Position numbers and translations under genes: made by a program
Assembly (NCBI GenBank): GCA_013368315.1
Contig: JAACJM010000103.1
Span: 124,001 to 188,000, forward strand
Source of the DNA: Tetrapyrgos nigripes
Lineage: Eukaryota > Basidiomycota > Agaricomycetes > Agaricales > Campanellaceae
Direction: 5' to 3'
DNA: 64,000 nt
In this document: piece by piece, positions 29,697 through 55,037 of the stretch
How positions within the stretch are numbered: the stretch's first letter is position 1
Layout: every line of letters starts with the position of its first letter
The notes under the pieces: generated by a model
What the model was told of the DNA's origin: nothing
What the model saw: the letters and a program-made list of their open reading frames with translations, nothing else
The model's database searches: none

Positions 29697-29780
29697 GTTG
29701 TAGAGCGACTTCAGAGGAGTTGTGAGGAACTGTCTGCGTTGGTCTGGGGAAAGGCAGAGGACGGATGGGTAGGTTTTATA

Positions 29781-32555: not shown

Positions 32556-32603
32556 GGATTAAGGAGCCGTGGGAATGTCCAACGCGACTGTGAGGTTTCT
32601 CAG

Positions 32604-33248: not shown

Positions 33249-33810
33249 TCAATAACTTTGGTTAGGCGAAGGATCAAACTCCTTTGGCCGGACGTTAACA
33301 GTAGCGCATAAAGCTTTGTACTTGGAACGAATCTGACGGAAGAGTTTCGGAATATCCGTGATTACTTCTGCATCGTCTTCTCCGGCTGCCGGTGAAGATG
33401 AAGATTCTACGCTTGAGGGATTGACGCGAGGAAACCTGGAGATCAGGTTAAGAAGCTGTTTAGTGTGCTGGAATGCACGTCTACATCCGAAAGAGTTAGA
33501 CGGTCACTATGCACCAAAAAAAAATCAGCGCACCCTTCCTGCTTCCCCTCTCTGAGCAGAATACTCTGCCATAACATCGCAAAGCCTTCATAGAAACCAA
33601 TCTCTTCCCACATCTCGTATCCTTTCTCTCTACCCAGGGCCCGGCCTTCGATGAGGCCATGGATACGACCATGAGCGAAACCGTCTTGGTAGCCATCGTC
33701 GTAAAATCTGATAATAAAGGAGATCAGATATACATACTTCTGTGGAGAGGAATGCTTCAAATGTACGTTTCCTCGAGATGTACAAGTGCTTCAAGGTCAA
33801 AATCGGTCAT
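33249..33810 (-). CDS. LTO1: LTO1 homolog (Yae1-domain protein)
   Basis: Adaptor of the Yae1-Lto1 complex, which in yeast helps load the iron-sulfur cluster on the ribosome-recycling factor Rli1. Exons 33,810-33,767, 33,707-33,534 and 33,480-33,249 give 149 residues; introns are 59 and 53 bp. The start MTDFDLEALVHLEETFYDD is followed by the diagnostic deca-GX3 repeat, in which glycine recurs every fourth residue (DGYQDGFAHGRIHGLIEG, then GREKG). The C-terminus ends in a hydrophilic segment reading NQSY. Length is normal for the family. Confidence 0.93.
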
Positions 33811-34003
33811 CTTGCTGGTGGTACGAAGTCAAGTACAGTAACGCGTGCTCAATTGACTCTTCTATCTATCTATCTATCTCTTGTCCGTCATCTTCATACC
33901 ACTGTCTACCTCTTTTGTTCCACCATGTCTGGAATGGCATCTGACAAGCGAATAGACGTGCCATGGCTAAAGACCAAGAAGAGGCCAGGTACATATCAAC
34001 TCT

Positions 34004-36620
34004 CTACTCTTGACTACCATAAATATACAGAAATACAACTCCTGGAAGTAGGACATAAAAGAGTTTGAGTAGAATAACCTTCAGTAACTGTCTCATCATC
34101 CAGACTCGAGGAAAGAGACCAGAATCTGTATCATCATCTTCGTATAATGAAGATTGGTATCCATGAGCTCGTTCAAAATCACTGTCCTGAATAAGCGAAC
34201 GTAACTCCTGGTAGACTGGTTAACCGAAGTACAGGCTATTCGCAGGGTATAACGCTTACCTGGACCTCTTGCTGTAGATTTGGAACGAGGACCTGCACAG
34301 AACGCAGCCCCTGGTGGACTTGTTAACCAAAGAACAGGCTACGTCCAAGACAGAATGCTTACCTGGACCTCTTGCTGTAAGTTTTGAACGAGGACCTGCA
34401 CAAAAAACAGTCAGTCTTACTGATAATGGGTCCAAATGGCGATTTCATAACTTACTCGCAAATTAGAATCATCGGAGCCTGGAACTGCCTGTTGTGACAA
34501 AGGAGAAGACGACACCACACTGCCAGCTGCAAGTACAGATGCGGGCCTGGGGATAGAATCTTCACCGACGTTGTTGTCCGAGTCATAGCGATATTCCTCA
34601 ACGTAATGCGATGAGTGAGAATTGGGACCTTGGGTTGACGCTGGCAAATGGGGACCATGCGGTAGTTGTCGGTCCACCGTTTCTTGTTCATGAGGCGCAG
34701 GCCGCAAAGTAGCTGAGCTGTCGCCCTCGATGTCCAATGTTGCATGGGTTTGACGAAGTCTGCCCAATTCACGTTCCAGCAACTACAACCAAGCTGTAAG
34801 TGTATGCCTTATCGGAATCGGAAACATAACCAGACCTGGTTGAGCAGGAGGTCGACGAGAGCCGTCGCATGGGTTTGACGAAGAGTGTCCGTAAGCGGAG
34901 AATCATTGGGCATAGTTTGGTGTGGTCGAGAATTGTGATCATAGGATTCATTGTTCCGAGGTTGAGCATGACAACGAGGACGAGTACTCGCTTGAGCAGA
35001 ACGATTTGACGCATAATTTTGCCAATATCGGTGGCGGTTCAGGTTCAAACTGGCCGCCTCGGAGTGTAATGCCAAGAAGTCTGCTGCGAATTCTCAATTC
35101 CACCCTCAACGCCTGGAATTTTTACTCAGATTGGATCACAACTACAGATCCCGTGTATCACTAACTCACCTGGAACTCACGCAGAGCACTATAGAGAGCC
35201 GTCTCTTTCCTATGGTTAAAGAAGGAATCAGACTATATCACTTCAAACCCAGCAATCCATAGACGCACCCTGCGAAGCTCCCGATTTTCTCTTTCCAACT
35301 GTTGTATCCTGAAATCTAGCCCTTGCGAGGAGCGCGAGTCACCTAACGGATTTGAAAGGTTTCCAACGTATGATTGACCGTATTGTATGTACTGTTGGCA
35401 CGACACCGATGTGGACCCCTCATTAAAATGAATGTACGGGCACCTTCAAAAGGCTGATTGACATGACAACAGCAGATCGGCGATATAACGAAGAAGGGAA
35501 GAGTCCAAGCTTTTGTGATTGGTTGATTGGCTTCTGTTAGGGCGATGTGACTGAAACCATCCCGCTCGCAGGCCATGGGAAATTTGCTTTAGTCGCTTAT
35601 ATCGAGGATAGGGGCGTATTACCAGCCTCTCGTATAACTTGGGTGGGTCCGGGGCATTTGTAACGCCAGGCTGTTGCAACCACTTTGTTGGCCAGGAGAG
35701 CTACTGCAAAGAACACTCTGCGGTGGCGACGATACGGGTTGGAATGAAGAAATCAGTGGTGAAGACTCTGGCCAATTCCATTCCTGACGGCAGGCAGCGG
35801 GATGCAATCGTTTGTTGAGGGCGTTGGTTTTGGAAGGACTATGGGAGTTATGAGCTCGTCCAGATCCCAAACTTGCCAAATAAGCTCCTCGTTGGAATTT
35901 ACGCCGCACCTGCTTCCTGAGAGCCATTTCCGTGGAGACAAAATGACTGCATTGTCACCGGTACCATGATGTGATGACCGGACAGCTAGCCGTCGCGGAT
36001 CTATGGCACATATTCCAATATGGGGCGCCCAATACTTCCTTGTGTAACAACCTTCAGAGGCCTCTAGTTGAGGCCGACATAGCGGTCGTGAGGAAGGCGT
36101 GATGCTGCTGACTTTCGCAGGGAGTGAATTGCGAAGGACGCTGTAAAGGGCTTTCATGTTGAAACCTGTATCTGGCAAATGGAAGAAAGCATGCGACTGG
36201 ACGCTGGTCTGGGACTCCTTGGGAGTGATGCCGTCCCAGATGAGCAGTATGCTTGTGGGCGCCCAGGATTCTTTGGCTGAACCAATAGACAGGATTGGTT
36301 TGAGGAGTGCAAAAGCATGGCGTATGGCCTCCCCGTCAACCTTCATAAAGCCCATGACATAGTCAGAAGAGGACCATGAACCAAAACCAAGATTGTCCAT
36401 GCTTATCAATTTTGACTTGAAAGGAAGCTTGGTCGAAACGTCCGTAAGCAGCTCGGGAGATAGGACGTGGTCTGAGACCCAAGAGTCTATTGCTGGTTTG
36501 GGTGCGTCCCCACCAGCAGGAGATGAAAAAAAGTAGCGTTCTGACTTGGGACCTCTGAAAACTGCAGGGCTTCTCGGAAAGCTGAGCACTTCCATATCGC
36601 TCGGTTCCAGCCAAATCGGT
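34004..36620 (-). pseudogene. Decayed C-terminal module downstream of the C2H2 gene
   Basis: Continues the C2H2 gene with sequence homologous to the tails of the F-box chimera and the WOPR gene. It keeps WVSDHVLSPELLTD, LLIWDGITPKESQ, IQQLERENREL, introns at matching places and the final hydrophobic segment ending LYIYGSQE at a TAG (34,006-34,004). Compared with the F-box locus, a base is lost at about 36,617, and further shifts occur near 35,810 and 35,690, so three reading frames are needed to follow it. It is therefore probably 3' untranslated sequence of the C2H2 gene. Confidence 0.75.
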
Positions 36621-38450
36621 GCACAATCTCCCTCCGGTATCCTGCTCTTTTTCTTCCAACTCGTCCACGACCATTTCCACATCTACTTCTACGTCTAGTG
36701 CAGCAACGTCCAGAGTGGCACTGCCCGGGCAGCCAGTCGACTCGAGTTCAAAATTGGTCAGACCATCGTAGTTGCTGACGCTAATCGTAGGCACATTGGG
36801 ATGACGATCCTGAATGGAATCACAATATACCGATGACCGTGAAACGATAGATGGATTGGGAGATGGCGGCGTCATTTGCAAAGCGGGAGGCATGGGCGTG
36901 ATACCAATGGAGATGGAAGGTTCCGCCATAACATGGTCCGACGAAACACTAGTATCCAGCGCCAAAGTTGGAACAACAAATCCAGGTCCAGGATCTTGAT
37001 CATGAAGTTCATGATCGTGTCGTGAAAAACTCGAGTCAGAGGCTGAGCTACCAAAGGAACCCGCCCGAGAACGGCTATGACCAAACTTACGAGTACTGTG
37101 ACCCGGTTCATTCTGTCCATGAATCCCACCGCCAGCACCACCAGCTCCATCACCACTGTGACGAATGCGAGTATGATGGGCATTGCCATGCCCTCTTTCA
37201 GACCCGGTTTGTGCAGTTTCGGCAGGAGGCTGCAGTGCGTATGGCGGTGGTGGTTGATCGTCGTACTCGAAGAGCTGGTACTTATTCTGTAGTTCCGCGG
37301 GTAGGGGGGATAGTAAGGATCTCGGATGGGACGGTTGAGAAGAACAAGAGTCTTCTAGAGCGATGGTATCCATCCCGTATCCCATCTGCGAGGTAGGTTG
37401 AGTCTGGAGAGGAGGAAGAGATGATATGGAAGGTAATGGTGGCAACGAAGGCGGCGAGGACAGAGAAGGTGCTTGTTCCCTACTCGCAGAACCCGAATCA
37501 GTGCCAAATCCAGGCAAAGGCGTGAACAAGGGCGAATTCTGGGGAAGACGATCGTATTGGGAGTAGGACGAATATGATGAGGATGGTGACGAATACGATG
37601 AGAATGAGGAAGAAGATTCCGAAAGACTCTGGCGGTAATGGTGGTGATGATGAGGAGGGAGGTGGTGGTAGGTGGGTTGAGTGGGTTGGGAAGGCAGAGA
37701 GGAGATGTAGTCGTTGCCGAGACTGGAACGAGTCGAGGAATAGCCCCACTGAGAATGCCTATAGTCGACATCGGAGAGATCATCATCGAGGTAGCTGGCT
37801 ACCATAGATTGGTAGAGGTCATCTTCTGAATGGAGAGAACTCATACTGGTGCGTCTAGAGAGATTGGCTTGACCAGCGGCAATGACGGCTTCTTGCTCCT
37901 TCTTTTGCTTGCGCCACTGCTTTCGTATTTCCTTGAATTCTGGGGAGAATGAGAAAAGGAAAAAAGGCGAGATGGAAAACGCACCATTGGGAGAACGCTT
38001 TTGGCCGTGCTTTTGCATGGTGACATGTGCATTAAGATGGTTGAGAGTGCCGTATGCCTTTGTGCAATCTGGCCACGAGCACTGGTAGAGACGTTCGATT
38101 TCGTCATAGCGCCTGCGCGGACGCTTTTTGACGGCATTGCCTGGGAGTGCCACGAAGGAATAAGTTTTAGAGTTGTTTGTGGGACTGCGAGCGTCTGTGG
38201 AAGACGCGTCTGCTGAATTGGAAGAGGTAGAAATTGCGGTACCTGGAGGCGAGGGCCCATACGAGTCGGTGTACGCGTTGTTGTTGTCGATGGCAAAGTT
38301 AGAGGAGTAGGGCAAGAGCGATGGAGAGGACGGGTAGTAGATAGAGGAGTTTTGTACGTCAATGAGAGAGTCGTTTTTGGACCAGCAGGGCGGATCAGAA
38401 CCGAAGTGGGGGGTGGGGTAGTCGTCGACGTCTGGCGGGAAGGTCAACAT
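36363..38450 (-). CDS. C2H2 zinc-finger transcription factor with truncated tail
   Basis: Exon 1 is 38,450-37,985 and exon 2 is 37,939-36,363, with a 45 bp intron that is also in frame if retained. Spliced length is 680 residues. One C2H2 finger at about residues 124-148 (CSWPDCTKAYGTLNHLNAHV, spacing CX4CX12HX5H) is followed by a basic coil EFKEIRKQWRKQKKEQE. This combination is common in Agaricomycete nuclear proteins of otherwise unknown role. The rest is Ser/Pro/His-rich. From about residue 560 it shares the module of the neighbouring loci (LQNKYQLFEYDDQPPPPYAL; DELEEKEQDTGG), but a frameshift near 36,617 replaces the remainder with about 80 unrelated residues and a stop. Confidence 0.85.
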   Translation of the reverse strand: MLTFPPDVDDYPTPHFGSDPPCWSKNDSLIDVQNSSIYYPSSPSLLPYSSNFAIDNNNAYTDSYGPSPPGTAISTSSNSADASSTDARSPTNNSKTYSFVALPGNAVKKRPRRRYDEIERLYQCSWPDCTKAYGTLNHLNAHVTMQKHGQKRSPNGAFSISPFFLFSFSPEFKEIRKQWRKQKKEQEAVIAAGQANLSRRTSMSSLHSEDDLYQSMVASYLDDDLSDVDYRHSQWGYSSTRSSLGNDYISSLPSQPTQPTYHHLPPHHHHHYRQSLSESSSSFSSYSSPSSSYSSYSQYDRLPQNSPLFTPLPGFGTDSGSASREQAPSLSSPPSLPPLPSISSLPPLQTQPTSQMGYGMDTIALEDSCSSQPSHPRSLLSPLPAELQNKYQLFEYDDQPPPPYALQPPAETAQTGSERGHGNAHHTRIRHSGDGAGGAGGGIHGQNEPGHSTRKFGHSRSRAGSFGSSASDSSFSRHDHELHDQDPGPGFVVPTLALDTSVSSDHVMAEPSISIGITPMPPALQMTPPSPNPSIVSRSSVYCDSIQDRHPNVPTISVSNYDGLTNFELESTGCPGSATLDVAALDVEVDVEMVVDELEEKEQDTGGRLCTDLAGTERYGSAQLSEKPCSFQRSQVRTLLFFISCWWGRTQTSNRLLGLRPRPISRAAYGRFDQASFQVKIDKHGQSWFWFMVLF

Positions 38451-40832
38451 CGCTATGGCTAATGGTCTGCTTCTTGCGAGCTTCTTGTACTATTTATCAT
38501 CTAAGTAGAAGTGAACTACGGAATGTCGTTGGAGAAAAACTTTCGCATTTTTTGTGTCGACGGCGACACAACTTCGTCGATGCACTCTTGATAACCTAAA
38601 TCTTGAATCTACCAAGTTTCAGGTTTTTCTAGGGAGGATAAGTAGGATGCTAGAGTCTCCTTCGATTAAGCGGGGAAGTGAACTACGAGCGTCGAGGATT
38701 AGACGCCACGCGGCGTCGGAGTTTGAAAACTCTCTCAACAGCTTATACACCTACTCCTCCTCGACTTCCACTCAATAAGTAGCTTGAACAACCCTTTATC
38801 CCCGATTTCTGTTACTTATATCCTTCATGGTGATTTCCTGCATATGTCGCGTGAAATTCTCGATGGACTATTTACTACACATCCTAAATGATAGCGGACT
38901 TCAAGTGTCACGCCCAAACTGGCAGCATCGATATCGTTTTTCGACACGGAATTGGTGTGCCATTTTTTCATCGTCCCGGAACACAATTCTGATTAGACAG
39001 TCGTTTATATAATGCATAATACTATCTTTTTTGAAAATTGTGAAGGCAGTCGACAATTATTGCCGAACCTTTAGGTTTGGCTCCTTACAAGTTACAGGAA
39101 TCTCTCCAGCTCTCCAAAGAAGAATTGGGAGCCGCGAGAGGCGAGGTAATCACCTCAATGAACGGTTTCTCTTCAGGAGGACGGGCTTGCTCGTTCCGAT
39201 GACTGAGACTTCGCTTTAGTTTTAACGGTTATATTCGTAACGATTACCTTCGTTTCCTGTTCGAGTCCACACGCAGTGCGTAAAGGCATTTCCCTGGAGA
39301 CAACCTATGATTATGCTTATGATTATATGTGAAGTATGTACTATCGAGCGAGTTTAGATCCTCGCCCCCGACGCGGGCCTGAGCTAACGACCCTCATGAG
39401 GGTGCCTTGTCGTATAGCAAATGCCACTCCAAACGCTCCTCCAAAAAAAAAAAAAAAAAAAAAAAGAATCTCTCCAGCGATGTTTTTTCCAGACCATTCT
39501 CACGCTACCGTATATAGATATGTACTACTGCCAGACTCGTTCCTACTATGAGTACTATTTTGACGGGCGCCCATCTCCTCCTATCTGCTCTCAACCTCTC
39601 GACGCCCCCGCACATCTCTCTGTTGTCTTTGTCCCTCTGCTACTCTCTCTGCTATTGCGTTCGCCGTCTTATTTGGCTTCTGAAACTCCAACCTCAATAA
39701 GTAATACTTAACCCTTTTGCCTTGTCTTCTGGTGTATCACTGCTGAACTCTATGATGCCTGCTACTAGTGAATGTGGTCTCAAATTCCATGTATGCTGTT
39801 TCTGAAACATAGTACAGAATTCTACTACAGGTTCCTTTCAGCTTGGATTGCCCACTTCTGTCAGTTCCTTTCTGTCTGTGTCTTCTTAGGTGCGTGCTAC
39901 CTTCTTTCCTTTATTACTCAAGGTTAAGTAATGGTGTTAACTCCTGGAAACCAGTGGTGGACTTTGCGAGGAATTTCAAAGACGTGTGTACCCAATGCTG
40001 TTTGATTCGGCGTGAACTTGCCAGAGGGTGGCAGTAGTGCTGGCTTGATTAATATGCCTGCTCTGCTTGAAAATGATTTCTATGCTGTGGTCAGCGTGTT
40101 AAGACTGAGAAATGCTGCATACGTTGTCGACAACGGGCGCTCGAAAACGCAAAGGATCAGATCGCGATGCCTCCAGGCGGCCAGCCAAGAATCAAAAACA
40201 TTTCACAAAGATACAACTGACCTCAGTTCTGACACATGCTCTAACGCCAACTGGCTAGAAATCCTATCATGGGACGAGAAAGGAAATATCATGCACGAAT
40301 GCTACTTATGATGCTGCCAGTGGTAGTAATGCTTCTATCAAACAGTTTGAATGCTCGTTCTGTGGTGTGCTCCAACAAACTCATGAGATTACTGTAGTCC
40401 TTGCCATTTCCTTACTTGAAGTTGTTGTACAGAAGCTCGAAAAGTTGGTGAAAAAATCAATCTATTCTACAGCTCAATTCCAAGACACTTTCCAAATTTT
40501 GTGAAAACTTATTGTATCCCCCTCTCTGTACTGCGCGAACTTGGCACGAACGGACGAGACATCAAAAGGTTCGGCCCTCGCTGCTCGCGGCCATCCCCCC
40601 CACTGCAGTCATCCGAAAGAGATACAAAAAGATTACGGAGTGTAGTTCACTTCTACTAGTACTAGGTCCTTGCCCGAACTGCAGCTCAATCATCTTCCTT
40701 TTTGGGAACAGACCTGCGTACCGCTGTCTGTGTCTTTTGTTCCGCCATATAATCATTCTGGAATGGCAACTGACAAGTGAATGGACGTGCCATGGCTAAA
40801 GACCAAGAAGAGGCCAGGTGCATATTAACTCT
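38451..40832. other. Intergenic DNA, low-complexity runs, no confident gene
   Basis: It contains the C2H2 promoter side, a run of 23 A at about 39,443-39,465 and pyrimidine-rich stretches. Short plus-strand frames such as 39,421-39,711 and 40,012-40,311 have no recognisable domain and no matching splice pattern. A stretch around 40,130 reads KRKGSDRDASRRPAKNQK but is not extended by a convincing gene. The last about 90 bp match the 3' ends of the neighbouring module-bearing loci. Confidence 0.4.
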
Positions 40833-43800
40833 CTACTTTTGACTACCATAAATATACAGAAATACACTTCCTGGAAGTAGGACATAGATGAGTTTGAGTA
40901 GAATAATCTTCAGTAACTGTCTCATCATCCAGACTCTAATAGAAAGACCAGAATCTGTATCATCTTCAGCTTCGTAAAATGAAGATCGGTATCCACGAGC
41001 TAGTCGTTCAGAATCACTGTCCTGAATAAGCGAACGTAACTCCTGCCAGTGGTAGACTTGTTAACCAAAATACAGGCTACATGCAAGACAGATTGCTTAC
41101 CTGGACCTCTTGCTGTAGATTTTGAACAAGGACCTGCACAAAATGCAGTCAGTCTTAATAATATTGGGTCCAAATGGCGATTTCATGACTTACTCGCATA
41201 TCAAAATCATTGGAGCCTGGAACTGCTTGTTGTGGCAAAGGAGAAGACAACACCCCACTGCCAGCTGCGGGTGCAGAGGCGGGCCTGGGGATAGAACCGT
41301 CACTGACATTGTTGTCCGAATCATAGCGATATTCCTCGACATGGGCATGTCGATAGTAACGTGTTGAGTGGGACTGGGGACTGTGGGTTGACGCTGGTAA
41401 ATGCGGACTGTGCGGTGGAAGTTGCCTGTCCCCTGCTTCTTGTTCATGAGGCGCAGGCTGCAAAGTAGCTGAGCTGTCGTCCTCGATGTCCCGTGTCGGG
41501 TGGATTTGACGAAGTCTGTCCAATTCAAGTTCCAGCAACTACATTCAAACTGTGAGTGTATGCCTTATCAGAATCGGAGACATGACCAGACCTGGTTCCT
41601 GAGCTGGAGAGCCTGGTTCTTGAGCTGGAGAGCCTGGTTTGTTCTCTGAAGACGAGAATGAGCAACCAAAGAGGACCACTGAGATATGTGTATCATTCAC
41701 CTGGAGAGCCAAATTTTCTAGTTCTTCTATCTTCAGCTGGAGCATATCCGGAGATAATTGAGTATGATTTGCATGAAGAGTGTCCGTAAGCGGAGAATCA
41801 TTGGGCATAGTTTGGTGTGGTTGAGAATCATGATGATAGGATTCACTGTTTTGAAAACGAGGATGAGAACGAGGAGGAGTACTGGCATTGGGGGGACGAT
41901 TTGACGCATAATCTGTCCCGCTAGCTCGCGATCCCAATACTGGTGGCGGTTCAGGTTCAACATCTGGCCGCCTCGGAGTGTAATGCCAAGAAGTCTGCTG
42001 CGAATTCTCGAATTCCACCCTCGGCGCCTGCAATTTTCACTCAGTTGGACTACAACTACAGATCCCATGTGTCAACTCACCTGGAACTCACGCTGAGCAG
42101 TATATGCAGCCTCTCTTTCCTGTGGATAAAGAATAATCAGATTATATCACTTCAAACCCAGGTAATCCATATACGCACCCTGTGAAGCTCCCTATTTTCT
42201 CTTTCCAACTGTTGTATCCTGAATTCTAGCCCCTGCGAGGAGCGCGAGTCACCTAACAGATTTGAAGGGTCTCCAACATCTGATTGACCATACTGTGTGA
42301 ACTGGTTACAGGTAACAAAAGTAGACCCCCTGTCGAAACGAACGTTATGGGCTTTTTGAAAAGCTTCTGAACATGACGACAGCAGATCGGCGATATAACG
42401 GAGAAGGGAAGAGTCCAGCTTTTGTGATTGGGTTAATTGCGTCCTATTAGGGCGATGTAACTGGTAGTGAAACCATCCCGCTCGCAGGCCATGGAAGACC
42501 TCCTTTGGTTGCTTATATCGAGGATAGAGGCGTACTACCAGCCTCTCGGGTAACTTCAACTTGGGCGGGTCTGGGGCATTCGTAACAGCCAGGCCGTTGC
42601 AACCACTTTGTTGGTCAGGTGAGCCACTGCAAAGAACATCCTGCGGTGGGGACGATACAAGTTGGGATGAAGAAATCAGTGGTGAAGACTCTGACCAGTT
42701 CCATTCCCGCCGACAAGGAATGGGTATGCAATCGTTTGTTGAGGGTATTGGTTTTGGAAGGACTATGGGGTTTATGAGCTCGTCCAGATCCCGAACTTGC
42801 CGAATAAGCTTAGCATTGGAGCTGACGCCAGAGCCACTCTCGAAGAGCCATTTCCGTGTAGACACGACAGCTGTGTTGTCACCGTGATGCGATGACCAGA
42901 CAACTAGGCTTTTGAGGGACGTCATACGAAGAAACAATAGATATCCTATATTGCAGATTGTGCCATGGATCTGGGAAGACTCCAACTGAGGCCAACATAG
43001 CGGTCGAGAGGATGCACACATCGCGAGGGAGGAAGAGGGTGCTGTGCTGCCGACTTTGGTGGAGGGCGGATCGCGAAGGACGCTGTAATGAGCTTTCATG
43101 TGGGCACCTGTATCTTGCGAAAGGAAGAAGGCAAGCGACTGGACCATAGGCTGGAACTTCTTGGGAGTGATGCCATCCCAGATGAGCAGTGGACTTGTGG
43201 GCGCCCAAGACCCTTTAACTGAACCAATAGACGGGATGGGTTCAAGGAGTGCAAAAGCAGTGTTTACTCCTCCCTCGTCGGGTTTCAGAAACCCGACGAC
43301 GAAGTCAAAACAGGGCCATGAACCAAAAACAAGCCCGTCGTCCAAGCCTTTCAATTTTGACTTGAGAGGAAGCTTGTCGGTAAGCAGTTCTGGAGATAGA
43401 ATGTGGTCTGAGACCCAAGGGTCTGTTGCTGGTTTCAGTGTGTCGACACCAGCAGAAGATGAAAAAAGGAAGTGACCTGATTTGGGATCGTAGAAATCTG
43501 CAGGGCTTCTCGGAATGCTGAGCATTCCCGTATCGCTCGGTCTGCAGCCAAAATCGGGGCACGTTACCCCTCCGGTATTCTCCTCTTTTTCTTCCAACTC
43601 GTCCACAACCTCTTCCACGTCTACCTCTGCGTCTTTTGCAGTAGTCTCATGTATGACATTGCCAGGGCACCCAGTCGGTTCGAGTTCAGAATTGGTAAGG
43701 ACATTGTAGTCACTAGTGCTAATAATAGGCACTCCATCCTTCAACTGGTTTCCCGACTGTCCTTGAGAGGTGGTTTCAGTAGGACGAAGGGCCGGGTTGG

Positions 43801-46800
43801 GGTTTGGTGTTGATCGAGTCGAGTGCAGCGTGTACTCGTCCTTGGTTGGTCTGCTCACAGAGTAGCTTTGAGATTTCTCCTCTTTTTCTTCCAACTTGTC
43901 CACGACCTCTTCCACGTCTACCTCTGCGTCTTTTGCAGCAGTCTCATGTATGACATTGTCAGGGCACCCAGTCGGTTCGAGTTCAGAATTGGTAAGGACA
44001 TTGTAGTCACTAGTGCTAATAATAGGCACTCCATCCTTCAACTGGTTTCCCGACTGTCCTTGAGAGGTGGTTTCAGTAGGACGAAGGGCCGGGTTGGGGT
44101 TTGGTGTTGATCGAGTCGAGTGCAGCGTGTACTCGTCCTTGGTTGGTCTGCTCACAGAGTAGCTTTGAGATTTCTCCTCTTTTTCTTCCAACTCGTCCAC
44201 GACCTCTTCCGCGTCTACCTCTGCGTCTTTTGCAGCAGTCTCATGTGTGACATTGCCAGGGCACCCAGTCGGTTCGAGTTCAGAATTGGTAAGGACATCG
44301 TAGTCACTGGTGCTAATAATAGGCACTCCATACTGCGACTGGTTTCCCGACCGTCCTTGAGAGGTGGTTTCAGTGGGACGAAGGGCTAGGTTGGGGTTTG
44401 GTGTTGATCGAGTCGGGTGCAGCGTGTACTTGGCCTCGGTTGGTCTGCTCGCAAAGTAGCTTTGAGATTCGATGGGAAGGACGTGGTTCAACTTGAGTGA
44501 AAGACTGAATGCACCCTCCCATGCTGGAAGCTCTGAGTCTTCATTAACAACTCTCCAATTGCCAATGAAGTTTTGACCGCCGACAACTGAGCCGTAGAAG
44601 AAGAGGTTACGGTGGCGAGGATTGCGCTGTAGGTTAGTCAATAATAGACAAGCATGAGGGTGAAGGCATGCGAGAAGCGAAGTATTTCCGTGTCACAGAT
44701 GGAGACGGTGTTGTGAGAGATGAGAGTAGTTGGAAGACACGGGCACAAGAACGTGATAATGGGTTCACATATGCCGGCGACAAAATATGAATAAGGAGCG
44801 GGGAAGACAAGAATAGACGGTCGTATTGGCGGTCACGAAGGAGCCCACGTTCAAAAGAAAGTGATCAGAGTTTGAAGTAGTTTCAAATCAACATACGTTA
44901 GGTATGTCAAATTGGAGGGTGGAATGACAGAAGCAGCCACCAGAACGGTTTTGTCGTGAGAGATGATGGATGGCGAGACGTAAACACGTATTCGAAGCGA
45001 TTGAAGGAAGACGATCATTGCAGACGTCGAGAATGTCAAAGATAGTGATAAAGTAAACGAGAAAAAGAGAGCATGTCGTCAGCGATGAGCGAATATCGTA
45101 GAGCAAAGACTACACGTACAGGAGTCCTCAGAATGCCAACCATTCCATCATACTTTCTTACTCGGCCATGGAATGAGAAATGATTCCAAGCTTGACCGTG
45201 GCGTTCGTCAGTCTCGCCGATAACGATGATGTCCTGAATGCCATCACATTCCAAAATTTTCCGAGGGTCATGAAAGTCTTGATGCTCGTATTCAGACTCT
45301 TCGTCGTCATCTTCTTCTCCGTCCTCTTCGTTGTCAGACACTTTGAGAGTGGGTTCCTGCTCTTCGAGTTCAACCTTCCTGAGAGCATCTTTCCTTGCCT
45401 TGCATCCAGGACAATTATCGGTATCATGGAAGCGGCCAGGCTGTGGCTCTGGGTCTGGGCCCTCCCCGTCTCTTCGTGCCGTCCTGTGCAGACTCTGATA
45501 AACGTACTCCTCCACCTGCCCGCTGCTCGAGTGTTCAGCGGGAACGATCACTCTCAGGCCATCGCCATCTGGTGTGGGCTTGAACTCTGTCCCTTCTGGG
45601 AAATACCCATTTTGCATGCCTTGGCCGTACTGTGCACCAGTCTTACCGGGCGCTCCGCTCCTAGGGCCCCCACTTGGTACCACCTCCCGGGAGCATAAGA
45701 GACATACTCCCTAAGCCGCATATAGACTGGGACAGTTAGAGGCCCGAGATGCTCCTCATTGAAATGAATGGGAATTGAAACGGGAGCAGCAGGTTCTGGA
45801 GGGAGTAAGAGTGCCTCTAAACGTTGCTGGGACGGAATCTACAGGATAGTCCGTTAGAGTTGATCGAAACCATGAACACGATGTGCAATCGTGACTTTGA
45901 CTTACCAGCATACGCCCGGCCCAAAGACCAGTAAGAGAACCTGGTTCATAAACTCTTCCCTTCTTTGGAAAGCCAGCCATCATTGTGGGAGCTTCATGGG
46001 CATCCAAGCAGCTGTGGCACTGCCTGACTCGCCACCAATCGTTATCCCATCGACGGCTAGCACACCCAGATTCATCAATTTCAATAAATTCGCCGTCTTC
46101 TGCCTGTCTGTAAGGCGCGGGTTGGACTAGAGCAGCACCACCGCCTTTGCCATAGCGACTGACAAGATCCTGCTGAACGAGTTCACCACCCAGTAGGCTA
46201 GCATTCAGTTCTACAATGTCCTCTTGAGTTGGACCTGTTTCCTGAGAGACTCGGCGTTCAATTTCGGTAGGAGAGGGGCCCTTAGTGCCTAAATGGGCAG
46301 TATCGTCGACTATTCTTTGTCTGGTACGGTTGTTAAACTCTTCACGGGTGGTAGGGAGAGGCGGAATGGCAAGAAGAGTGGTTTCGCGACGGGAAAAGTA
46401 GAGTAGCTTGGCCGACTCGGTGGCGAGTGGAATTACCAGCGGGGTGAGGTGATCGTAGTGATAGGAACGCCATGTGCGGTTATGATTGATGTAGATAGGA
46501 TAGTCACCATGAGAAGTAGGGATAGTGTAGGTGTGTGTGTTTCGAGGCATATCGTGAGCTGAGGAGGCACCGAGAGGAAGATGGAAGTGGTTGGGTGGTG
46601 CAAACGCAGACGGATAATGGAAAGGAACGGTAACAAATGGCAGCACAAAATTAATCAGCTCATCGCGAGCAAGGTCATCCTCCGCAAGAAGACGAGCTAG
46701 AAACAGAGTTGGATTGCGTAAGAGGCGGTTATGACAAGGGTGCTCACCTTTGCTCGTCAAGAACCACATAATCCACATGGCACAGGAATTGCGAGGGTTG

Positions 46801-47279
46801 TCAATGGGCCAGCCATGCTCTGTTTCGGCGTAGAGCTGAGTACGAACGTAACGCTCTACCCACTGGTAGACACCAGCACATTCCATCTGCATACGATTGC
46901 AGCCATCGTCATCGATACACATAAACCACAGAGTGAGAAAGATGTCGTCGAGAGGAAGAAGCCTGCGGTCTGATTGTTCTGCAAAGGGGTGGGGAGAAAG
47001 CAGACGGTGCTTGACTTCTCGAAGGGCCTCGCAGGATCTTCTGAGCTGAAAGGCGATCTCGGAGTATTTTGGGGTGTATTCGCGGCGATGAATGGCAGAG
47101 AAGGAGAACTTGTAGCTAAAAATGCGGGCAAAGAGGGCATGGGAGTTTGCGAGCTTGTGTGTGAGGATGGAATGGGTCAAGAGGAGAGGAGTGATGGATT
47201 CAGGGAGACCATGGAGGACAGGACAGGCGAGGTAGAAAGCGATGTGGTCAAGAAGTTCTTGGGGAAGACGGAGAAGCAT
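40833..47279 (-). CDS. Giant F-box chimera: F-box protein fused to coiled-coil/hydrophobic tail module
   Basis: Exons: 47,279-45,906, 45,838-45,708, 45,660-45,120, 44,626-42,179, 42,119-42,081, 42,027-41,701, 41,645-41,592, 41,538-41,194, 41,133-41,101 and 41,042-40,833. All join in frame for 1,833 residues. The first four exons carry a common Agaricomycete F-box protein: LPQELLDHIAFYLACPVLHG at the start, PGSLTGLWAGRML, DERHGQAWNHFSFHGRV and FYGSVVGGQNFIGNWRVV. That protein normally ends soon after AWEGAF. Here it runs on without a stop into three 99-residue repeats, the shared module, a coiled coil (LERENRELHR; TNQALQLKNQALQLKNQ; LLELELDRLRQ) and a hydrophobic C-terminus (LLKIILLKLIYVLLPGSVFL). 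The 492 bp intron before exon 4 is unusually long and may hide an exon. F-box proteins usually link substrates to an SCF ubiquitin ligase; the fused tail's role is unknown. Confidence 0.75.
43578..44470 (-). repeat. Three 297 bp (99-codon) tandem repeats in the F-box chimera
   Basis: Period 297 bp, in frame. Each unit runs from SQSY(S/F)xSRPT through NPALRPTETTSQGQSGNQ and SELEPTGCPGN to DELEEKEE. The two units nearest the C-terminus are almost identical and the N-terminal one is more diverged, so the array grew recently. Confidence 0.92.
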
Positions 47280-47505
47280 CGCAGACTTGTATCCATACCC
47301 CGCCCGGGGGAACGGACCATTGAGAAACGGTTGAGGAAAGAAAGAAAGAGTGTGCTAGCCTTCTCTGATCAGTAACAGAAGTACAAAAACGCGGCGAGCC
47401 AGTGGCTGTGTCTTTGGTATCCGCCATATAATTATTCTGGAACGGCAACTGACATGGCTAAAGACCAAGAAGAGGCCAGGTACATATTAACTCTCTACTT
47501 TCAAT

Positions 47506-50500
47506 CTACCTTTGACTACCATAAATATACAGAAATACACTTCCTGGAAGTAGGACATAGATGAGTTTGAGTAGAATAATCTTCAGTAACTGTCTCATCA
47601 TCCAGACTCTAATAGAAAGACCAGAATCTGTATCATCTTCAGCTTCGTAAAATGAAGATCGGTATCCACGAGCTAGTCGTTCAGAATCACTGTCCTGAAT
47701 AAGCGAACGTAACTCCTGCCAGTGGTAGACTTGTTAACCAAAGTACAGGCTGCGTGCAAGACAGATTGCTTACCTGGACCTCTTGCTGTAGATTTTGAAC
47801 AAGGACCTGCACACAATACAGTCAGTCTTAATAATATTGGGTCCAAATGGCGATTTCATGACTTACTCGCATATCAGAATCATCGGAGCCTGGAACTGCC
47901 TGTTGTGACAAAAGAGAAGACGACACCCCACTGCCAGCTGCGGGTACAGACGCCGGCCTGGCCATGGGATAGGATCGTCACCGACATTGTTGTCCGAATC
48001 ATAGCGATATTCCTCGACGTGGGCATGTCGATAGTAATGCGATGTGTGAGACTGGGGACTGTGGGTTGACGCTGATAAATGCAGACTGTGCGGTGGAAGT
48101 TGCCTGTCCCCTGCTTCTTGTTCATGAGGCGCAGGCCGCAAAGTAGCTGAGCTGTCGTCCTCGATGTCACATGTCGTGTGGATTTGACGAAGTCCGCCCA
48201 ATTCAAGTTCCAGCAACTGCAATCAAACTGTGAGTGTATGCCTCATCAGAATCGGAGACATAACCAGACCTGGTTCCTGAGCTGGAGGTCGACAAGAGCC
48301 TGGTTTGTTCTCTGAAGATGAGAATGAGCAACCAAAGAGGACCACTGAGATATGTGTATCATTTACCTTGAGAGCCAAATTTTCTCTCTCTAGTTCTTCT
48401 ATCTTCAGCTGGAGCATATCCGGAGATAATTGAGTATGATTTGCATGAAGAGTGTCCGTAAGCGGAGAATCATTGGGTATAGTTTGGTGTGGTCGAGAAT
48501 CGCGATGATAGGATTCATCGTTTTGGGAACGAGACTGAGAACGACGACGAGAACTGACATGAACGGGACGACCTGGCGTATAATCTGTCCCGCTAGCTCG
48601 GAATTCCAATACTGGTGGCGGTTCAGGTTCAACATCTGGCCGCCTCGGAGTGTAATGCCAAGAAGTCTGCTGCGAATTCTCAAACTCCACCCTCGACGCC
48701 TGGAATTTTTACTCAGCTAGGCCACAACTACAGATCCCATGTGTCAACTCACCTGGAACTCACGCTGAGCAGTATATGCAGCCTCTCTTTCCTGTGGATA
48801 AAGAATAATCAGATTATATCACTTCAAACCCAGGTAATCCATACACGCACCCTGTGAAGCTCCCTATTTTCTCTTTCCAACTGTTGTATCCTGAATTCTA
48901 GCCCCTGCGAGTCACCTAACGGATTTGAAGGATCTACAAGATCTGATTGACCATGCTGTATGTACTGTTGGCACGTAACAAAAGTAGACCCCCTGTCGAA
49001 ACGAATATTACGGGCATCTTGAAAGGCTTCTTGCCATGACGACAGCAGATCGGCGATATAACGAAGAAGGGAAGAGTCCAGCTTTTGTGATTGCGTTGAT
49101 TGCGTCCTATTAGGGCGATGTAACTGGTAGTGAAACCATCCCGTTCGCAGGCCATGCTTTGGTCGCTTACATCGAGGATAGGGGCGTATTACCAGCTTCT
49201 CGTATAACTTGGGTGGGTCTGGGGCATTGGTAACAGCCGGGCCGTTGCAACCACTTTGTTGGCCAGGAGAGCTACTGCAAAGAATATCCTGCGGTGGCGA
49301 CGATACAAGTTGGGATGAAGAAATCAGTGGTGAAGACTCTGGCCAATTCCATTCCTGCAGACAAGGGATGGTTATGCAATCGTTTGTTAAGGGCGTTGGT
49401 TTTGGAAAGACTATGGGAGTTATGAGCTGGTCCAGATCCCAAACTTGCCGAATAAGCTCTTCGTTGAAATTTACGCCGCACCCGCTTTCTGAGAGCCATT
49501 TCCGTGGAGACAAAATGACTGCGTTGCCACCGGTACCATGATGTGATGACCAGACGGATAGGCCTTTGAAGGTTGTCATACGAGATGTTGGGTATCCCAT
49601 ATTGCAATTCGTCACCTGGACCTGGGAAGACTTCCATTGAGGATGGCAGGGTGAAGGTGACGAAGCACGCATCGTGAGGAAGGAACAAGAGGCTGCGCTG
49701 CTGACTTTTGCAGAGGAAGTATTGCGAAGGACGCTGTAAAGGGCTTTGCATGTGGGCGCCTGTATCTGGCAAAGGGAAGAAGGCAGGGGACTGGACAATA
49801 GGGTGGGACTCCTTGGGGATGATACCATCCCAGATGAGCAGTACACTCGTGGGCGCCGAAGACCCTTTAGACAGGATAGGTCCAAAGAGTGCAAAAGCAG
49901 TTTTTACTGCTCCCTCGTCGGCTTTCAGAAATCCCACGACGAAGTCAAAACAGGACCATGAGCCAAAAACAAGCCCGTCCAAGCCTTTCAATTTTGACTT
50001 GAGAGGAAGCTTGTCCGTTAGCAGCTCTGGAGATAGAATGTGGTCTGAGACACAAGGGTCTGTTGCTGTTTTGAGTGGGTCCCCACCAGCGAGAGATGAA
50101 AAAAGGAAGCGGTCTGGCTTGGGATCGTAGGAATCTGCAGGGCTTCTCGGAATGCTGAGCATTTCCATATCGTTCGGGCTGCAGCCAAAATCGGGGCACG
50201 TTACCCCTCCGGTATTCTCCTCTTTTTTTTCCAACTCGTCCACGACCTCCTCCACGTCTACCTCTGCGTCTTTTGCAGCAGTCTCATGTGTGGCATTGCC
50301 AGGGCAGTCAGTCGGCCTGAATTCAGATACATCGTAGTCACTGACGCTAATAATAGGCACACTGGGATGACGATCCTGAATGAAATTACAATATATCGAT
50401 GGCCGTGAAACGATAGATGGATTGGGAGACGGCGGCGTCATTTGAGTAGCGGGAGGCATGGGAATGATACCAATGGAGATGGAAGGTCCCGCCATAGCAT

Positions 50501-51773
50501 GATCCGACGAAACAATATCCAGCGCCAAAGTTGGAACAATAGATCCGGATCCAGGGTCTTGGGCATCAAGCTCAAGATCATGATTGTGGCGTGAAAAACT
50601 CGAGTCAGAGGCTGAGCCACCAAAGGAACCCGCTCGAGAACGGCCACGACCAAAATTACGAGTACTGTGACCCGGTCCATTCTGTCTGTGAAACCCACCC
50701 CCAGCACCACTGTGACTGCGGGCCCGTATATGTCTTGGCTGCTGCAGGAAACCGGGAACAGTCAAGTGCGTTGATTGACTGCGAGTATGATGGGCATTGC
50801 CATGCCTTCTTTCAGACGTAGCTTGTGGAGTTTCGGCAGGCGGCTGCAGGAGGGGTGGCGGTGGTGATTGATCGTCGTACTCGAAGAGCTGGCACTGATC
50901 CCGTAGTTCCACGGGCAGGGGCATAGTAAGGATTCCGGAGAGGATTGTTGAGAAGAGCAAGAGTCTTCTGAAGACCAGCTCGGTGACGAGGGAGTAGAAT
51001 TGGTGTAGTGAGGGGAAAGAAAGCTACTATCCTGAAACAGCGAGTGTCGAGGACGCTCCTTGGGAGGCGATCCTTCACATGTCCAGATTCCAGCGTCTGT
51101 GAACGAGGCATGGCCTGAAGATGGCGGACGACCTAAATCTGCCACACGACATGTTGGTAGCCTGTTCTCAGCATCTTCAAGCGCTGGATCGACAGAGGAC
51201 ATGTATTTCAACAGAGATGGGTCAATGGGGGACTGTGATCGAGATGAAGGAGAGCATAAAGTTGAGGATGATTCCCAAGTTGACGATGCGTCATCATCTG
51301 AGCCCCCGTAATCGGAAAAAGCTGTTGAAACACCATCATGAGAACCTGACATAGACCTCAGCGAAAGGAATGACTTCACCATCACAACCAGAACACGACG
51401 ACGATGAAGACCACCAGTGAGAAAAATCCCCTGTCGAAGGAGGAGGAGGAGTAACCCGACCGCGAGAGTCGCACAGTAGCGGCGAAAGCTGGTCATGGCT
51501 AAAATTGGCTGTACGACCTCCAAGTTGCACTTCGGGTGAGGTCAGAGGTAAATTCCTTGATGAGCACAGCCCTCGTTCCGAAAAATTGAGAAGGGTATCA
51601 TGCTCGGAATGGTATGCTGTAGGACTCAGAATACCAGCTACGCTATCTTCTTTTGGTGGTTCTATCTTAATCTGGATGAAGTCGCCGTTCGAAATATCCA
51701 TCATCTAGAAAGATAGGAACGTTAGGCAATATGACGAAATGCGAGGACCGAAAAACCTCACAGAAAGATGCAT
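47506..51773 (-). pseudogene. Third module-bearing locus, frameshifted
   Basis: A possible start MHLS at 51,773 is spliced over a 57 bp intron to MMDISNGDFIQIKIEPPKED (from 51,704). This N-terminus matches no family I know. The module follows: EDSCSSQQSSPESL, QLFEYDDQSPPPP, DELEKKEENTGG, LLIWDGIIPKESH, IQQLERENREL, coiled-coil exons, and a hydrophobic end stopping at 47,508-47,506. Frame changes are needed near 51,380, 50,930 (one base lost against the WOPR locus) and 49,740, so the full protein is not made unless unusual splicing occurs. Its promoter and 5' flank are copied from the WOPR-NOG1 intergenic region. Confidence 0.65.
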
Positions 51774-51865
51774 GTACAATGAAGGATGTCCTAGATGTTT
51801 GTAGAGGAAGACATAGAACAGTAGACCAGCTACTAGCAGAGGATGAAGAGGTGAAACTGGCCCGT

Positions 51866-52415
51866 GGTTTATAATGCTCTGGCAACGACGGCGTGACTTG
51901 AACTTTCCAAAGCCAAAATCAGCTAAGATTAGCAATCAAATTCTTGCAACATGGTGCTATCTGCCGATTGATTGTTTCCCGCTGTCTTCTTTTGCGAGAT
52001 GAATGGGACTGCACGGAGGGAACATACGATCGGTGCTACTATAAGTACAATCAGATTCCTTGATATGAGAAAAAAGCTTAAGCTGACTCACAAGATCATC
52101 CCATAATACTTGTCACTCGTACCATTCTTTCTTGTGTGGTCCCTTAAGACCCCTCTCAACAGAGATCTGAGTATTTTCAGCAGTGGACGTTTCGAACAAA
52201 TTCGCGACTCGCGTCGGCCGTCGGAAAGATTTTCGAGCACGTGGATCGTGAGAAACAATGTACTAAAATAAATTACCTGCTTCCTTTACCTCGAATCTCG
52301 ACGTCCATCATGTTGACAAGCGGTTTCAAGGTGATCGCGTCCGTGCCTACGGCGGCGGACTTCTTAGATATTGTACTCCAAGACCCAGTGCAAGACACCT
52401 GTTGTGCTCAAGCCC
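51866..52415 (+). pseudogene. Duplicated NOG1 promoter and first-exon fragment
   Basis: Matches about 54,512-55,135. It includes the upstream region shared with the WOPR gene (cattataaaccacggg on the minus strand) and a copy of NOG1 exon 1 from the ATG at 52,310: [19 protein letters not shown] against [20 protein letters not shown] small deletion shifts the frame after IVL, and the GTPase exons are absent. On the other strand it supplies the 5' end of the third module-bearing locus. Confidence 0.88.
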
Positions 52416-52590
52416 GTTATCTTTCTTATCAACCTGCGTGCAGCTGCCCGCTTCAAGTTCTTTTCCTCCACCATAGCCAATGATCACCAAATGAGGTACT
52501 CGCCAAGAACCGGTCTACAAAGACAGCTTACAAGTGACTAGACATGCTATGGCTCAAGACCCAGAGGAAGCGGCCCGGTACATTAGCTCT

Positions 52591-54305
52591 CTACTTTTGA
52601 CTACCATAAATATACAGAAATACACCTAGGACACAGATGAGTTGGAGCAGAACGATCTTCAGCAACTCTCGAATCATCCATACTCTCGAATCATCACTGA
52701 CAGCATCCGTGTCATCGTCATCTTCGTATTGGTATCCACGAACTCCTTTTTCACTGTCCTCAATACGCGAACGCAGCTTCTGGTGGATTTATTAACCAAA
52801 GAACAGGCTATGTGCAAGACAGAATGCTTACCTGGACTTGTGTGCTATCATTCACGTTAAGAGCCAAAATTTCTCTCTCTTGTTCTTCCGACTTCAGCCG
52901 GAGTATATCCTTGGATAATTGAGTATGATTTGCATGAAGAATGTCCGTAAGCGGAGAATCATTGAGCATAGTTTGGTGTGGTCGAGAATTATGATGATAG
53001 GATTCATTGTTTTGAAAACAAGGACTGTAACCCGATTCATTCTGTCCATGAAACCCACCACCAGCACCACCAGCCTCACCATCACTGTGACAACTGAGAG
53101 TACGATGGGCATTACCATGCCCTCTTTCAGACCCAGATTGCGCAGTTTCAGCCGGAGGCTGCCACAGTAGGTATGGCGGTGGTGTTTGATCGTCGTACTC
53201 GAAGAGCTGGCACTTATTCTGTAGTCCCACGGGAAAGGGGAATACTAAGGACTCCGGAGAGGATTGTTGAGAAGAACAAGAGTCTTCTGAGGGAGTAGAA
53301 TTGGTGGAGTGAGGGGAAAGAGAGCCACTGTCCTGAAACAGCGAGTGTCGAGGACTTTCAGGAGACGACCGAGATCTGTTGTTAGTAGACCTCGGATCAT
53401 TGGTTGGTGATTCTCGGTGATAGTCTGGTGGCGAACCAGTGAGTAATGGAATTGTCAGTGAGTTAGGGTTGGTTTGAGTATATGCAGTGTAGGACACTTG
53501 TGGCGAGACGCCGGTCCAAGGGTTGACTTGGAATGGATCGTAAGAATCTCGAGGGCGTCGCCTGGCAGAGCGTGTATTTTTGTATTTACCAGGGGGGACG
53601 TGCAAATTGGCGAGACCTGGAATGTCGTGGATTGTTTTAAGGTACGGCAAGGAGTTTTGGGTAAAATATGCGACTAGAGAATGAAGAGATGAGGGAGCGG
53701 AACGGGTAGCAACGAGTGAAAAGACATACTGAGGTGCCATTTACTACGTCCTCTTCGAGTGTCCACGAAAACAGAATAGGTTTGTTTGACGAGATTCTCT
53801 CTGTATAATCCTCGGCTGTATGTGTGAGGGGATGCGCTATGCAACGAATATATGACGGAATATTGGGAAAACTCACGTTTCATCCGAATCAGATACTGCC
53901 AGCTCAATCTCAGTGGGTTCGCGCTCTTTTTCGTGATAAAACAGAAATTCCTAGACTCCAGTCAGATAAAGAAAGACCGAGATAAACCCCGGATACTCAC
54001 GTCCTTTACACGACTTGGGCCCCAGCGTTTCGAGTCTGTCCACCGTACAATTCCAAGCTATTAAAAGCGTAGATGGTTATGACAGATAGCATCGACGATG
54101 GAAAGGTAGTACTTACTCCGGTAGCTTCAGCATTTGAACCACTCTCTTTCCAAACGAACACACAACCAGAAGTGATATGTTGACGTTCTTCAGTGTCAAG
54201 TCGCCGAGAGACAATGGGCAAGAGGTTGAGAGAGACAGCATGGAGGATGACCTGGGCTTCCGCGGTCGAACGTACGCGGAGCATAGTACAAGTGGATCTC
54301 TGCAT
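52591..54305 (-). CDS. Gti1/Pac2 (WOPR) regulator with coiled-coil/hydrophobic C-terminal tail
   Basis: Exons: 54,305-54,117, 54,057-54,001, 53,950-53,877, 53,815-53,730, 53,673-52,832 and 52,779-52,591, in frame for 478 residues. The N-terminal WOPR DNA-binding region is complete: LRVRSTAEAQVILHAVSLNL, VSRRLDTEERQHITSGCVFV, GIVRWTDSKRWGPSRV, EFLFYHEKE, VKQTYSVFVDTRRGRSKWHL, YFTQNSLPYLKTIHDIPGL. Proteins of this family (Pac2, Gti1, Wor1) control morphogenesis, conjugation or virulence programmes. After it comes the module shared with the three neighbouring loci, in shortened form, ending in LLKIVLLQLICVLGVFLYIY followed by GSQK. That is a strong candidate membrane segment and is unexpected for this family. 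A TATA-like sequence lies about 90 bp upstream; NOG1 is divergent, 733 bp away. Confidence 0.88.
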
Positions 54306-55037
54306 GGAGGGCTGGGCTGAGAAAGGATAAGATGGGGAAGTGCGTGGGGAGAAATGAGCGAGGAGACTCCACTGCGCTCAAAGATGCTGTATTATATACC
54401 TGCAGGTAGGCCTGTGACTTAGGCCCTTCTTTCTGAGTTATCGAAGTTGATCAAAAGCTTCTGTCATCAAACCTCGATAATTAAATCAGAGGGACCTTAT
54501 CCCACCCGTGGTTTATAATGTTCTGGCAACGGCGGCGTGACTTGAACTTCCCAAAGCGTCGGGCAACGCGTCATCAGCTAAGATGAACAGTCAGTCACAA
54601 TTCTTGCAACATACCTTACTAGTCTATTTCTTCGGCGGAGACGAATATCATCTTGTAAACGTTGTAAACACAGTGCTAGTTGACGATTGATTGTCTCCCG
54701 TTGTCTTCTTTTGCGAGACGAATGGGACTACACGAACGATTCGGTGCTAAGTAGTAAGTACAATGAGATCGATATCCCTTGGTATAAGAAAAAACTTAAA
54801 CTGACTCACAAGTTCCAGAAGATCTGCCCAGAGTACTTGTCACTCGTATCATTCTTTTTTGTGTGGTCCCTAAAGAACCATCTCAACAGAGATCTGAGTA
54901 TTTTCAGCAATGAACGTTTCGAACAAATTTGCGACTCGCGTCGGCCGATGGGAAGCACGTGGATCGTGAGAAACAATATACTAAAAAATTGCCTGCCTTC
55001 CTTTACCTCCACACCGACCTCGAGCTCGACGTCCATC
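54306..55037. promoter_or_regulatory. Divergent promoter region between the WOPR gene and NOG1
   Basis: 732 bp between the two start codons. On the minus strand there are TATA-like sequences at about 54,391-54,399 and 54,512-54,517. Most of the region from 54,512 onwards is duplicated at 51,866-52,310. Confidence 0.6.

What the first reader, a model, noticed from the sequence alone, without database searches (positions are those of the whole stretch)
34004..54305. Four neighbouring genes with unrelated N-termini share one C-terminal module
Seen: the C2H2 locus, the F-box locus, the third locus and the WOPR locus, all on the minus strand, carry homologous 3' parts. These comprise the QLFEYDDQ region, the LLIWDGITPK region, coiled-coil exons with the same intron positions, a hydrophobic last exon ending YIYGSQK or a near variant, and a matching 3' flank. 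The WOPR copy is a shortened version. Inference: a 3' gene segment spread by local duplication and was captured by different upstream genes, giving a small family of transcription-factor and F-box proteins with a common tail. I know of no described family with this tail.
Basis: partly seen in the sequence, partly recalled or inferred. Interest (0 to 1): 0.88.

Follow-up and report, generated by a model that had tools for sequence, protein, structure and literature searches.

The report
Mushroom gene array collecting foreign heads
In one 20-kilobase stretch of a mushroom genome, near-complete copies of three unrelated regulatory genes from elsewhere in the genome have been joined, in frame, onto copies of one otherwise unknown gene ending, which leaves a readable record of how mosaic genes arise.

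Summary
Observation confirmed. Four minus-strand loci of Tetrapyrgos nigripes share one tail at DNA level (introns, hydrophobic last exon, 3' flank). The interpretation must be turned round: the tail was not captured by resident genes. Three heads are ectopic DNA copies, introns included, of genes present without the tail on other contigs (C2H2 on C76, WOPR on C56, F-box on C108). Each copy starts 10-136 bp before the ATG, ends 9-31 codons before the donor's stop, and joins the tail at its own breakpoint. The F-box unit also carries 175 bp from a PH/kinase gene on C76. All four junctions keep frame. The third head has no second copy and may be native. No relative of the tail was found outside this contig among 5.8 billion proteins (length- and candidate-limited search). 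Only the WOPR fusion (annotated, 478 aa) is open throughout; the others have frame breaks, real or assembly errors. The tail kept its frame (10 of 12 indels are multiples of three) but hardly its amino acids; the WOPR head changed about five times faster than its donor. Best reading: a tandem array of a fast-evolving, probably membrane-anchored orphan gene that repeatedly acquired heads. Expression and function are untested; neutral decay is the main rival.

The parts
54505..55130 (-). 5' flank of the WOPR unit: NOG1 start codon side and promoter (NOG1 runs on the + strand from an ATG at 55038); duplicated at 51861-52400
53356..54407 (-). WOPR (Gti1/Pac2) head, ectopic copy of C56:281290-282351 (L028 2791-3852), 90.6%, introns kept
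52513..53355 (-). Shortened tail of the WOPR unit; joins the head at 53355/53356 in frame
52591..54305 (-). Complete WOPR fusion gene, 6 exons, 478 aa, no frame break (public model D9758_011505)
51861..52400 (-). 5' flank of the third unit, about 80% copy of the NOG1/WOPR flank
51055..51860 (-). Head of the third unit; no second copy in the genome; candidate native head
47403..51054 (-). Long tail of the third unit (public model D9758_011504 covers part); at least three frame breaks
44502..47289 (-). F-box-type head, ectopic copy of C108 (L042 3315-6194), 91.9%, introns kept; one frame break near 45.69 kb
44327..44501 (-). Linker, 85% copy of C76:143184-143352, open in the same frame in a PH/kinase gene
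43578..44469 (-). Three tandem 297-bp units spanning the linker/tail junction
40719..43732 (-). Long tail of the F-box unit, seven tail exons counted from 44626, open reading frame to 40833
40666..40707 (-). Outlying 5' piece of the C2H2 head copy (43 bp, 93%), directly after the F-box tail's 3' flank
38504..40657 (.). Later insertion into the C2H2 head copy, perfect 16-bp terminal inverted repeats
37367..38489 (-). C2H2 zinc-finger head, ectopic copy of C76 (L027 2745-3908), 83.7%, intron kept
33897..37356 (-). Long tail of the C2H2 unit; in frame with the head for about 239 codons, then frame breaks (public model D9758_011502 covers part)

Best explanation
A tandem array of one orphan gene (disordered part, coiled coils, hydrophobic C-terminal helix) beside NOG1 has repeatedly received near-complete 5' gene bodies copied as DNA from unlinked genes, giving in-frame chimeras. 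SHOWN: head copies with introns; donors without the tail on other contigs; three different breakpoints in the tail; a second donor piece in the F-box unit; four of four junctions in frame; WOPR fusion open throughout. INFERRED: copying by repair- or replication-type template switching at short homologies; retention of the early fusions because an open protein with a near-full head was useful or at least tolerated; the WOPR product is a head displayed on a tail-anchored coiled-coil membrane protein that no longer acts as its donor does and may interfere with it or serve as bait. The C2H2, F-box and third copies are partly or wholly decayed, if their frame breaks are real.
For: Tail homology and tandem order. 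Tail-free counterparts of three heads on C76, C56 and C108 with abrupt ends and kept introns. Linker from C76:143 kb. Direction for WOPR: the replaced C-terminus is conserved in the donor and 7 relatives aligned; 22 of 28 head differences lie on the fusion branch, 4 on the donor branch, 2 ambiguous. Frame kept in the tail: 10 of 12 exon indels F-box/third are multiples of three, P 0.0005; 4 of 4 in WOPR/F-box last exon; no stop in 518 codons. C-terminal helix predicted at residues 445-477 of P0003, pLDDT 87-96 in its blocks; hydropathy 2.25-2.57 over 19 residues in all four. The 8.7 kb on the other side of NOG1 showed no ectopic head-type copy.
Against: No transcripts or protein tested. Tail substitutions show no codon-position signal (p 0.13 and 0.18) and dN/dS is 0.57-0.66, so amino-acid constraint is weak. 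Three of four units carry frame breaks. The F-box donor on C108 itself has two frame breaks. Eight of the 22 fusion-branch changes in the WOPR head hit residues shared by all nine relatives, which fits decay as well as a new role. Direction for C2H2 and F-box rests on anatomy only.
Confidence: 0.6

Rival explanations
1. Neutral debris: the contig is prone to duplication, the fusions are chance by-products that are decaying, and the open WOPR frame is simply not yet broken.
For: Frame breaks in three of four units; no codon-position signal in tail substitutions; fast change of the WOPR fusion head; large duplications left of the array.
Against: Four of four junctions in frame; near-complete heads in three of three cases; 10 of 12 tail indels F-box/third are multiples of three; on the WOPR fusion branch 22-24 amino-acid changes against about 41 expected if neutral, P 0.002, but P 0.06 if only 40% of synonymous change fell on that branch.
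Confidence: 0.33
2. One reading: a 3' segment spread by duplication and was captured by different resident upstream genes.
For: Tails share 3' flanks and lie in tandem.
Against: Three heads have tail-free counterparts on other contigs; the WOPR donor keeps the conserved C-terminus; third and WOPR units share DNA on both sides of unlike heads.
Confidence: 0.04
3. A transposon that captures genes (Helitron-like or Pack-TIR-like) carried the heads.
For: Multiple unrelated host pieces in one place, as transposons do; Helitrons with captured genes are described in Pleurotus ostreatus (PMC4289320, passages). A TIR-bearing insertion sits in one unit.
Against: The tail and flank units are not dispersed: DNA matches only within this locus. 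The TIR insertion interrupts the C2H2 copy and so is later. Helitron end structures were looked at by eye only and not systematically tested.
Confidence: 0.02
4. Assembly artefact joining unrelated sequences.
For: The assembly probably holds parts of two nuclei (PMC7368018, passages).
Against: Heads differ from donors by 8-16% at DNA level, so they are separate sequences; four units agree on tail structure; the WOPR fusion is an annotated gene of the same length as my model.
Confidence: 0.01

Closest known systems
Primate core duplicons such as LCR16a/NPIP (PMC7419210, passages; PMC6920530, abstract and section list)
   Same: One core segment present in every unit; flanking donor segments of varied origin, often parts of genes; fusion transcripts; fast evolution.
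   Different: Here the core is a gene tail in one 20-kb array, not spread over a chromosome; donor pieces are near-complete reading frames joined in frame; the primate fusions seldom keep an open frame according to the passage seen.
Chimeric genes from tandem duplication and exon shuffling (Drosophila yakuba, PMC5460883; search listing and start of abstract only)
   Same: New genes from 5' parts of one gene and 3' parts of another.
   Different: Here several distant donors feed one repeated tail.
Helitron captured genes in Pleurotus ostreatus (PMC4289320, passages)
   Same: Basidiomycete host-like genes collected in one genetic unit.
   Different: No dispersed copies here; helicase and terminal structures not found by eye, not systematically tested.
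Gti1/Pac2 (WOPR) regulators
   Same: WOPR fusion head matches PF09729; donor is a typical member with 732 proteins found.
   Different: Fusion lacks the conserved C-terminus and changes residues shared by all nine relatives compared.
Tail-anchored regulators such as lettuce NAC069 (PMC9545932; search listing and start of abstract only)
   Same: Regulator head with a C-terminal membrane anchor, by prediction here.
   Different: Unrelated sequences; membrane insertion not tested here.

Membership tests
Core-duplicon-like mosaic | One core segment shared by all units | tested here: met
   parts of the same tail in four of four units
Core-duplicon-like mosaic | Juxtaposed donor segments from unlinked loci | tested here: met
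   donors on C56, C76 (two places) and C108
Core-duplicon-like mosaic | Interspersed spread of the core through the genome | tested here: not met
   DNA matches only on this contig
Core-duplicon-like mosaic | Positive selection | tested here: inconclusive
   tail dN/dS 0.57-0.66 overall, locally above 1 in one block; no codon-position signal
Core-duplicon-like mosaic | Fusion transcripts | not testable with these tools
   no RNA data
Retrocopies | Introns lost in the copy | tested here: not met
   donor introns retained in three of three heads
Helitron capture | Terminal hairpin with CTRR end, RepHel helicase | not tested
   looked at by eye only; no systematic scan
Gti1/Pac2 (WOPR) | WOPR domain | tested here: met
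   PF09729, E 6.1e-25, above cut-off
Gti1/Pac2 (WOPR) | Conserved C-terminal stretch of the Agaricomycete members | tested here: not met
   present in donor and 7 relatives aligned, replaced by the tail in the fusion
F-box proteins | F-box domain | tested here: inconclusive
C2H2 zinc-finger regulators | Zinc finger of C2H2 type | tested here: inconclusive
   Zap1_zf1 E 0.0006-0.001 but below Pfam cut-off; the CX4C...HX5H pattern is read by eye
Tail-anchored membrane proteins | Single hydrophobic helix at the extreme C-terminus | tested here: met
   prediction only
Tail-anchored membrane proteins | Post-translational membrane insertion | not testable with these tools
   needs experiment

The most novel reading that the evidence does not exclude
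The array is a head-swapping gene nursery: a selected, lineage-restricted family of membrane-anchored mosaic proteins that repeatedly takes on near-complete heads of the organism's own regulators (two transcription factors, an F-box-type protein, a piece of a kinase gene) as baits or dominant interferers, much as some plant immune receptors carry integrated copies of host targets (comparison recalled, not tested).
Probability: 0.17. Interest if true: 0.87.

Novelty: new variant of a known kind. Interest (0 to 1): 0.6.

Why it matters
Chimeric genes made by ectopic duplication are known, usually studied one at a time. Here one small locus holds three head acquisitions at different breakpoints on the same orphan tail, with donors identified and borders known nearly to the base. 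The steps of new-gene formation can be read side by side: capture, in-frame joining, junction amplification, deletion and decay. It would also allow a direct test of whether a regulator can be turned into a membrane-anchored interferer by gaining one tail.

Tried and rejected
Known family for the tail: Pfam on the annotated and modelled proteins, PDB sequences with P0001 and Rfam on the window at gathering thresholds gave nothing for the tail. The large protein search found only two models of this contig; it considers proteins of about 470-1494 aa and scored only the 7,992 candidates with most shared words, so short or low-complexity relatives may be missed. The third head was searched with the same kind of limit (about 277-880 aa, 7,989 candidates scored).

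Structure: models of P0003 and P0001 are mostly low-confidence (mean pLDDT 53.2 and 41.0); only coiled-coil-like helices and a C-terminal helix were usable, so no fold search was run.

Retroposition was rejected because donor introns are kept. Alleles were considered because the genome paper says potential alleles were removed for this species (PMC7368018, passages); rejected as the source of the heads because head matches end abruptly inside otherwise unlike DNA and the NOG1 stretch 55300-58000 had no second copy.

I took exons at 27.2 and 31.6 kb for an exonuclease by motif (recalled); Pfam did not confirm, so it is not claimed.

Unexplained: the block 43100-42800 is far more diverged between F-box and third tails (dS 0.70) than the rest, while the last two exons show no synonymous difference over 81 codons; conversion between copies is a likely but untested reason. 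The sequence of about 114 bp between the third unit's 3' flank and the F-box head has no second copy.

Full report
Where it is. The window lies in a 296,374-bp contig (C100) of Tetrapyrgos nigripes (Agaricales, Campanellaceae). Three public models belong to the loci: D9758_011502 (C2H2), D9758_011504 (third) and D9758_011505 (WOPR), on a contig of the same length. The genome held has 98.5 Mb in 587 contigs. A paper that appears to describe the assembly says potential alleles were removed for this species (PMC7368018, passages), so parts of both nuclei may be present.

The observation. DNA comparison shows four homologous 3' parts on the minus strand. Long copies: third (51054-47403), F-box (43732-40719), C2H2 (37356-33897). 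The WOPR copy (53355-52513) lacks large internal parts; one deletion has fused a former intron donor into coding sequence, so the long form is the older one. The WOPR unit gives a six-exon, 478-aa frame from a PF09729 head to FLYIYGSQK, the length of public model P0003.

Heads come from elsewhere. Searches of the own genome found counterparts of three heads: C2H2 on C76:113236-114368, WOPR on C56:281389-282350, F-box on C108:174807-177683. Aligned DNA spans 38489-37367 (83.7%), 54407-53356 (90.6%) and 47289-44502 (91.9%), introns included. The copies begin 10 bp (F-box), 102 bp (WOPR) and about 136 bp (C2H2, counting the piece 40707-40666 beyond a later insertion) before the ATG, and end about 9 (F-box), 20 (C2H2) and 31 (WOPR) codons before the donor stop. 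The tail follows at once (WOPR) or after about 10 bp (C2H2). The F-box unit has a 175-bp linker, 85% identical to C76:143184-143352 and open there in the same frame, beside PH and kinase exons; whether the donor piece is exon or intron is not settled. The linker/tail junction is tandemly tripled in 297-bp units. In third-unit coordinates the tail begins at 51054 (WOPR), 50969 (C2H2) and 50360 (F-box), so the fusions are separate events. Four of four junctions (WOPR-tail, C2H2-tail, F-box-linker, linker-tail) keep the frame; chance alone would give that once in 81, judged after the fact.

The third unit. Its head has no second copy in the genome and no relative outside this contig in a limited protein search. 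Third and WOPR units share DNA on both sides of unlike heads, including the start of NOG1 and its promoter, found only at these two places. I infer that the third head is native and that the WOPR head replaced it in a duplicate; a lost donor is not excluded.

Direction. The WOPR donor finds 732 proteins at E <= 0.001 (best 120 listed). In the donor and the 7 relatives aligned the C-terminal stretch that the fusion lost is conserved. Of 28 head differences between fusion and donor, 22 fall on the fusion branch, 4 on the donor branch, 2 are ambiguous (nine relatives chosen from the 120 listed, Stygiomarasmius and Dendrothele for polarity; two-sided binomial 0.0005). Eight of the 22 hit residues shared by all nine relatives. 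For C2H2 and F-box the direction rests on anatomy; no protein search was left.

Selection. Head against donor, both branches pooled: dN/dS 0.33 (WOPR), 0.40 (C2H2), 0.35 and 0.40 (F-box, two parts). Tails: 0.64 F-box/third, 0.57 F-box/C2H2, 0.66 third/C2H2. Tail substitutions show no codon-position signal (p 0.13 and 0.18), and introns between F-box and third differ less (5.3%) than exons. Yet exon indels F-box/third are multiples of three in 10 of 12 cases (P 0.0005 against one third), WOPR/F-box last exon in 4 of 4, and the unique part of the F-box long exon has no stop in 518 codons against 18 in each other sense frame. F-box/C2H2: 13 of 25 (P 0.04). So a frame was kept, its amino acids hardly, and the C2H2 tail is decaying. 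On the WOPR fusion branch 22-24 amino-acid changes compare with about 41 expected if neutral at an equal share of synonymous change (P 0.002); at a 40% share P is 0.06. That suggests some constraint and does not prove it.

What it may do. Hydropathy and the P0003 model give a C-terminal helix (445-477) after coiled-coil-like helices (376-405, 412-426); the P0001 model has long helices at 626-675 and 755-808 in otherwise disordered sequence. I infer a tail-anchored protein that displays its head on a membrane. For WOPR, the lost C-terminus and changes at shared residues argue against a normal regulator. Interference or a bait role are possible; nothing here tests them.

How special. A search with window 55300-64000 found no ectopic copy of NOG1; it found weak SUR7-region paralogues (67-74%) and a multi-copy repeat of about 580 bp. 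The left side has large tandem and inter-contig duplications. So the contig is duplication-prone; whether such fusions occur elsewhere in the genome was not surveyed.

In print. Searches showed no paper on this locus among the titles and abstract starts listed; the library holds open-licence papers only.

Verdict. This is a fungal mosaic array with identified donors, a new variant of a known kind, with one open product whose expression and use are untested.

Noticed in passing
15902-22434: LTR retrotransposon: 183-bp direct repeats 98.4% alike at both ends, reverse transcriptase, RNase H and integrase in ORF 16362-19262 and a protease-like match in 19294-21393.
   Followed up: partly
24427-32605: 85% tandem duplication of about 3.8 kb with 93-95% further copies on the same contig (113215-117005, 78767-81888) and 70-77% copies on C60.
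   Followed up: partly
61785-62361: Repeat of about 580 bp, 97-99% identical to stretches on seven other contigs, five of them full length.
   Followed up: no
38504-40657: Insertion of about 2.15 kb with perfect 16-bp terminal inverted repeats inside the upstream part of the C2H2 copy.
   Followed up: partly
34197-34402: 103-bp tandem duplication of a mini-exon and intron in the C2H2 tail.
   Followed up: no
L042 (C108:171500-181000): The F-box donor has two frame breaks of its own relative to the array copy, while the array copy has one elsewhere; decay or assembly error.
   Followed up: no
L027 and L057 (C76): Two donor places, the C2H2 gene and the linker's PH/kinase gene, lie about 29 kb apart on one contig.
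   Followed up: no
33446-33790: A YAE1-type gene (PF09811, E 2.8e-10) flanks the array on the low side, NOG1 on the high side.
   Followed up: no
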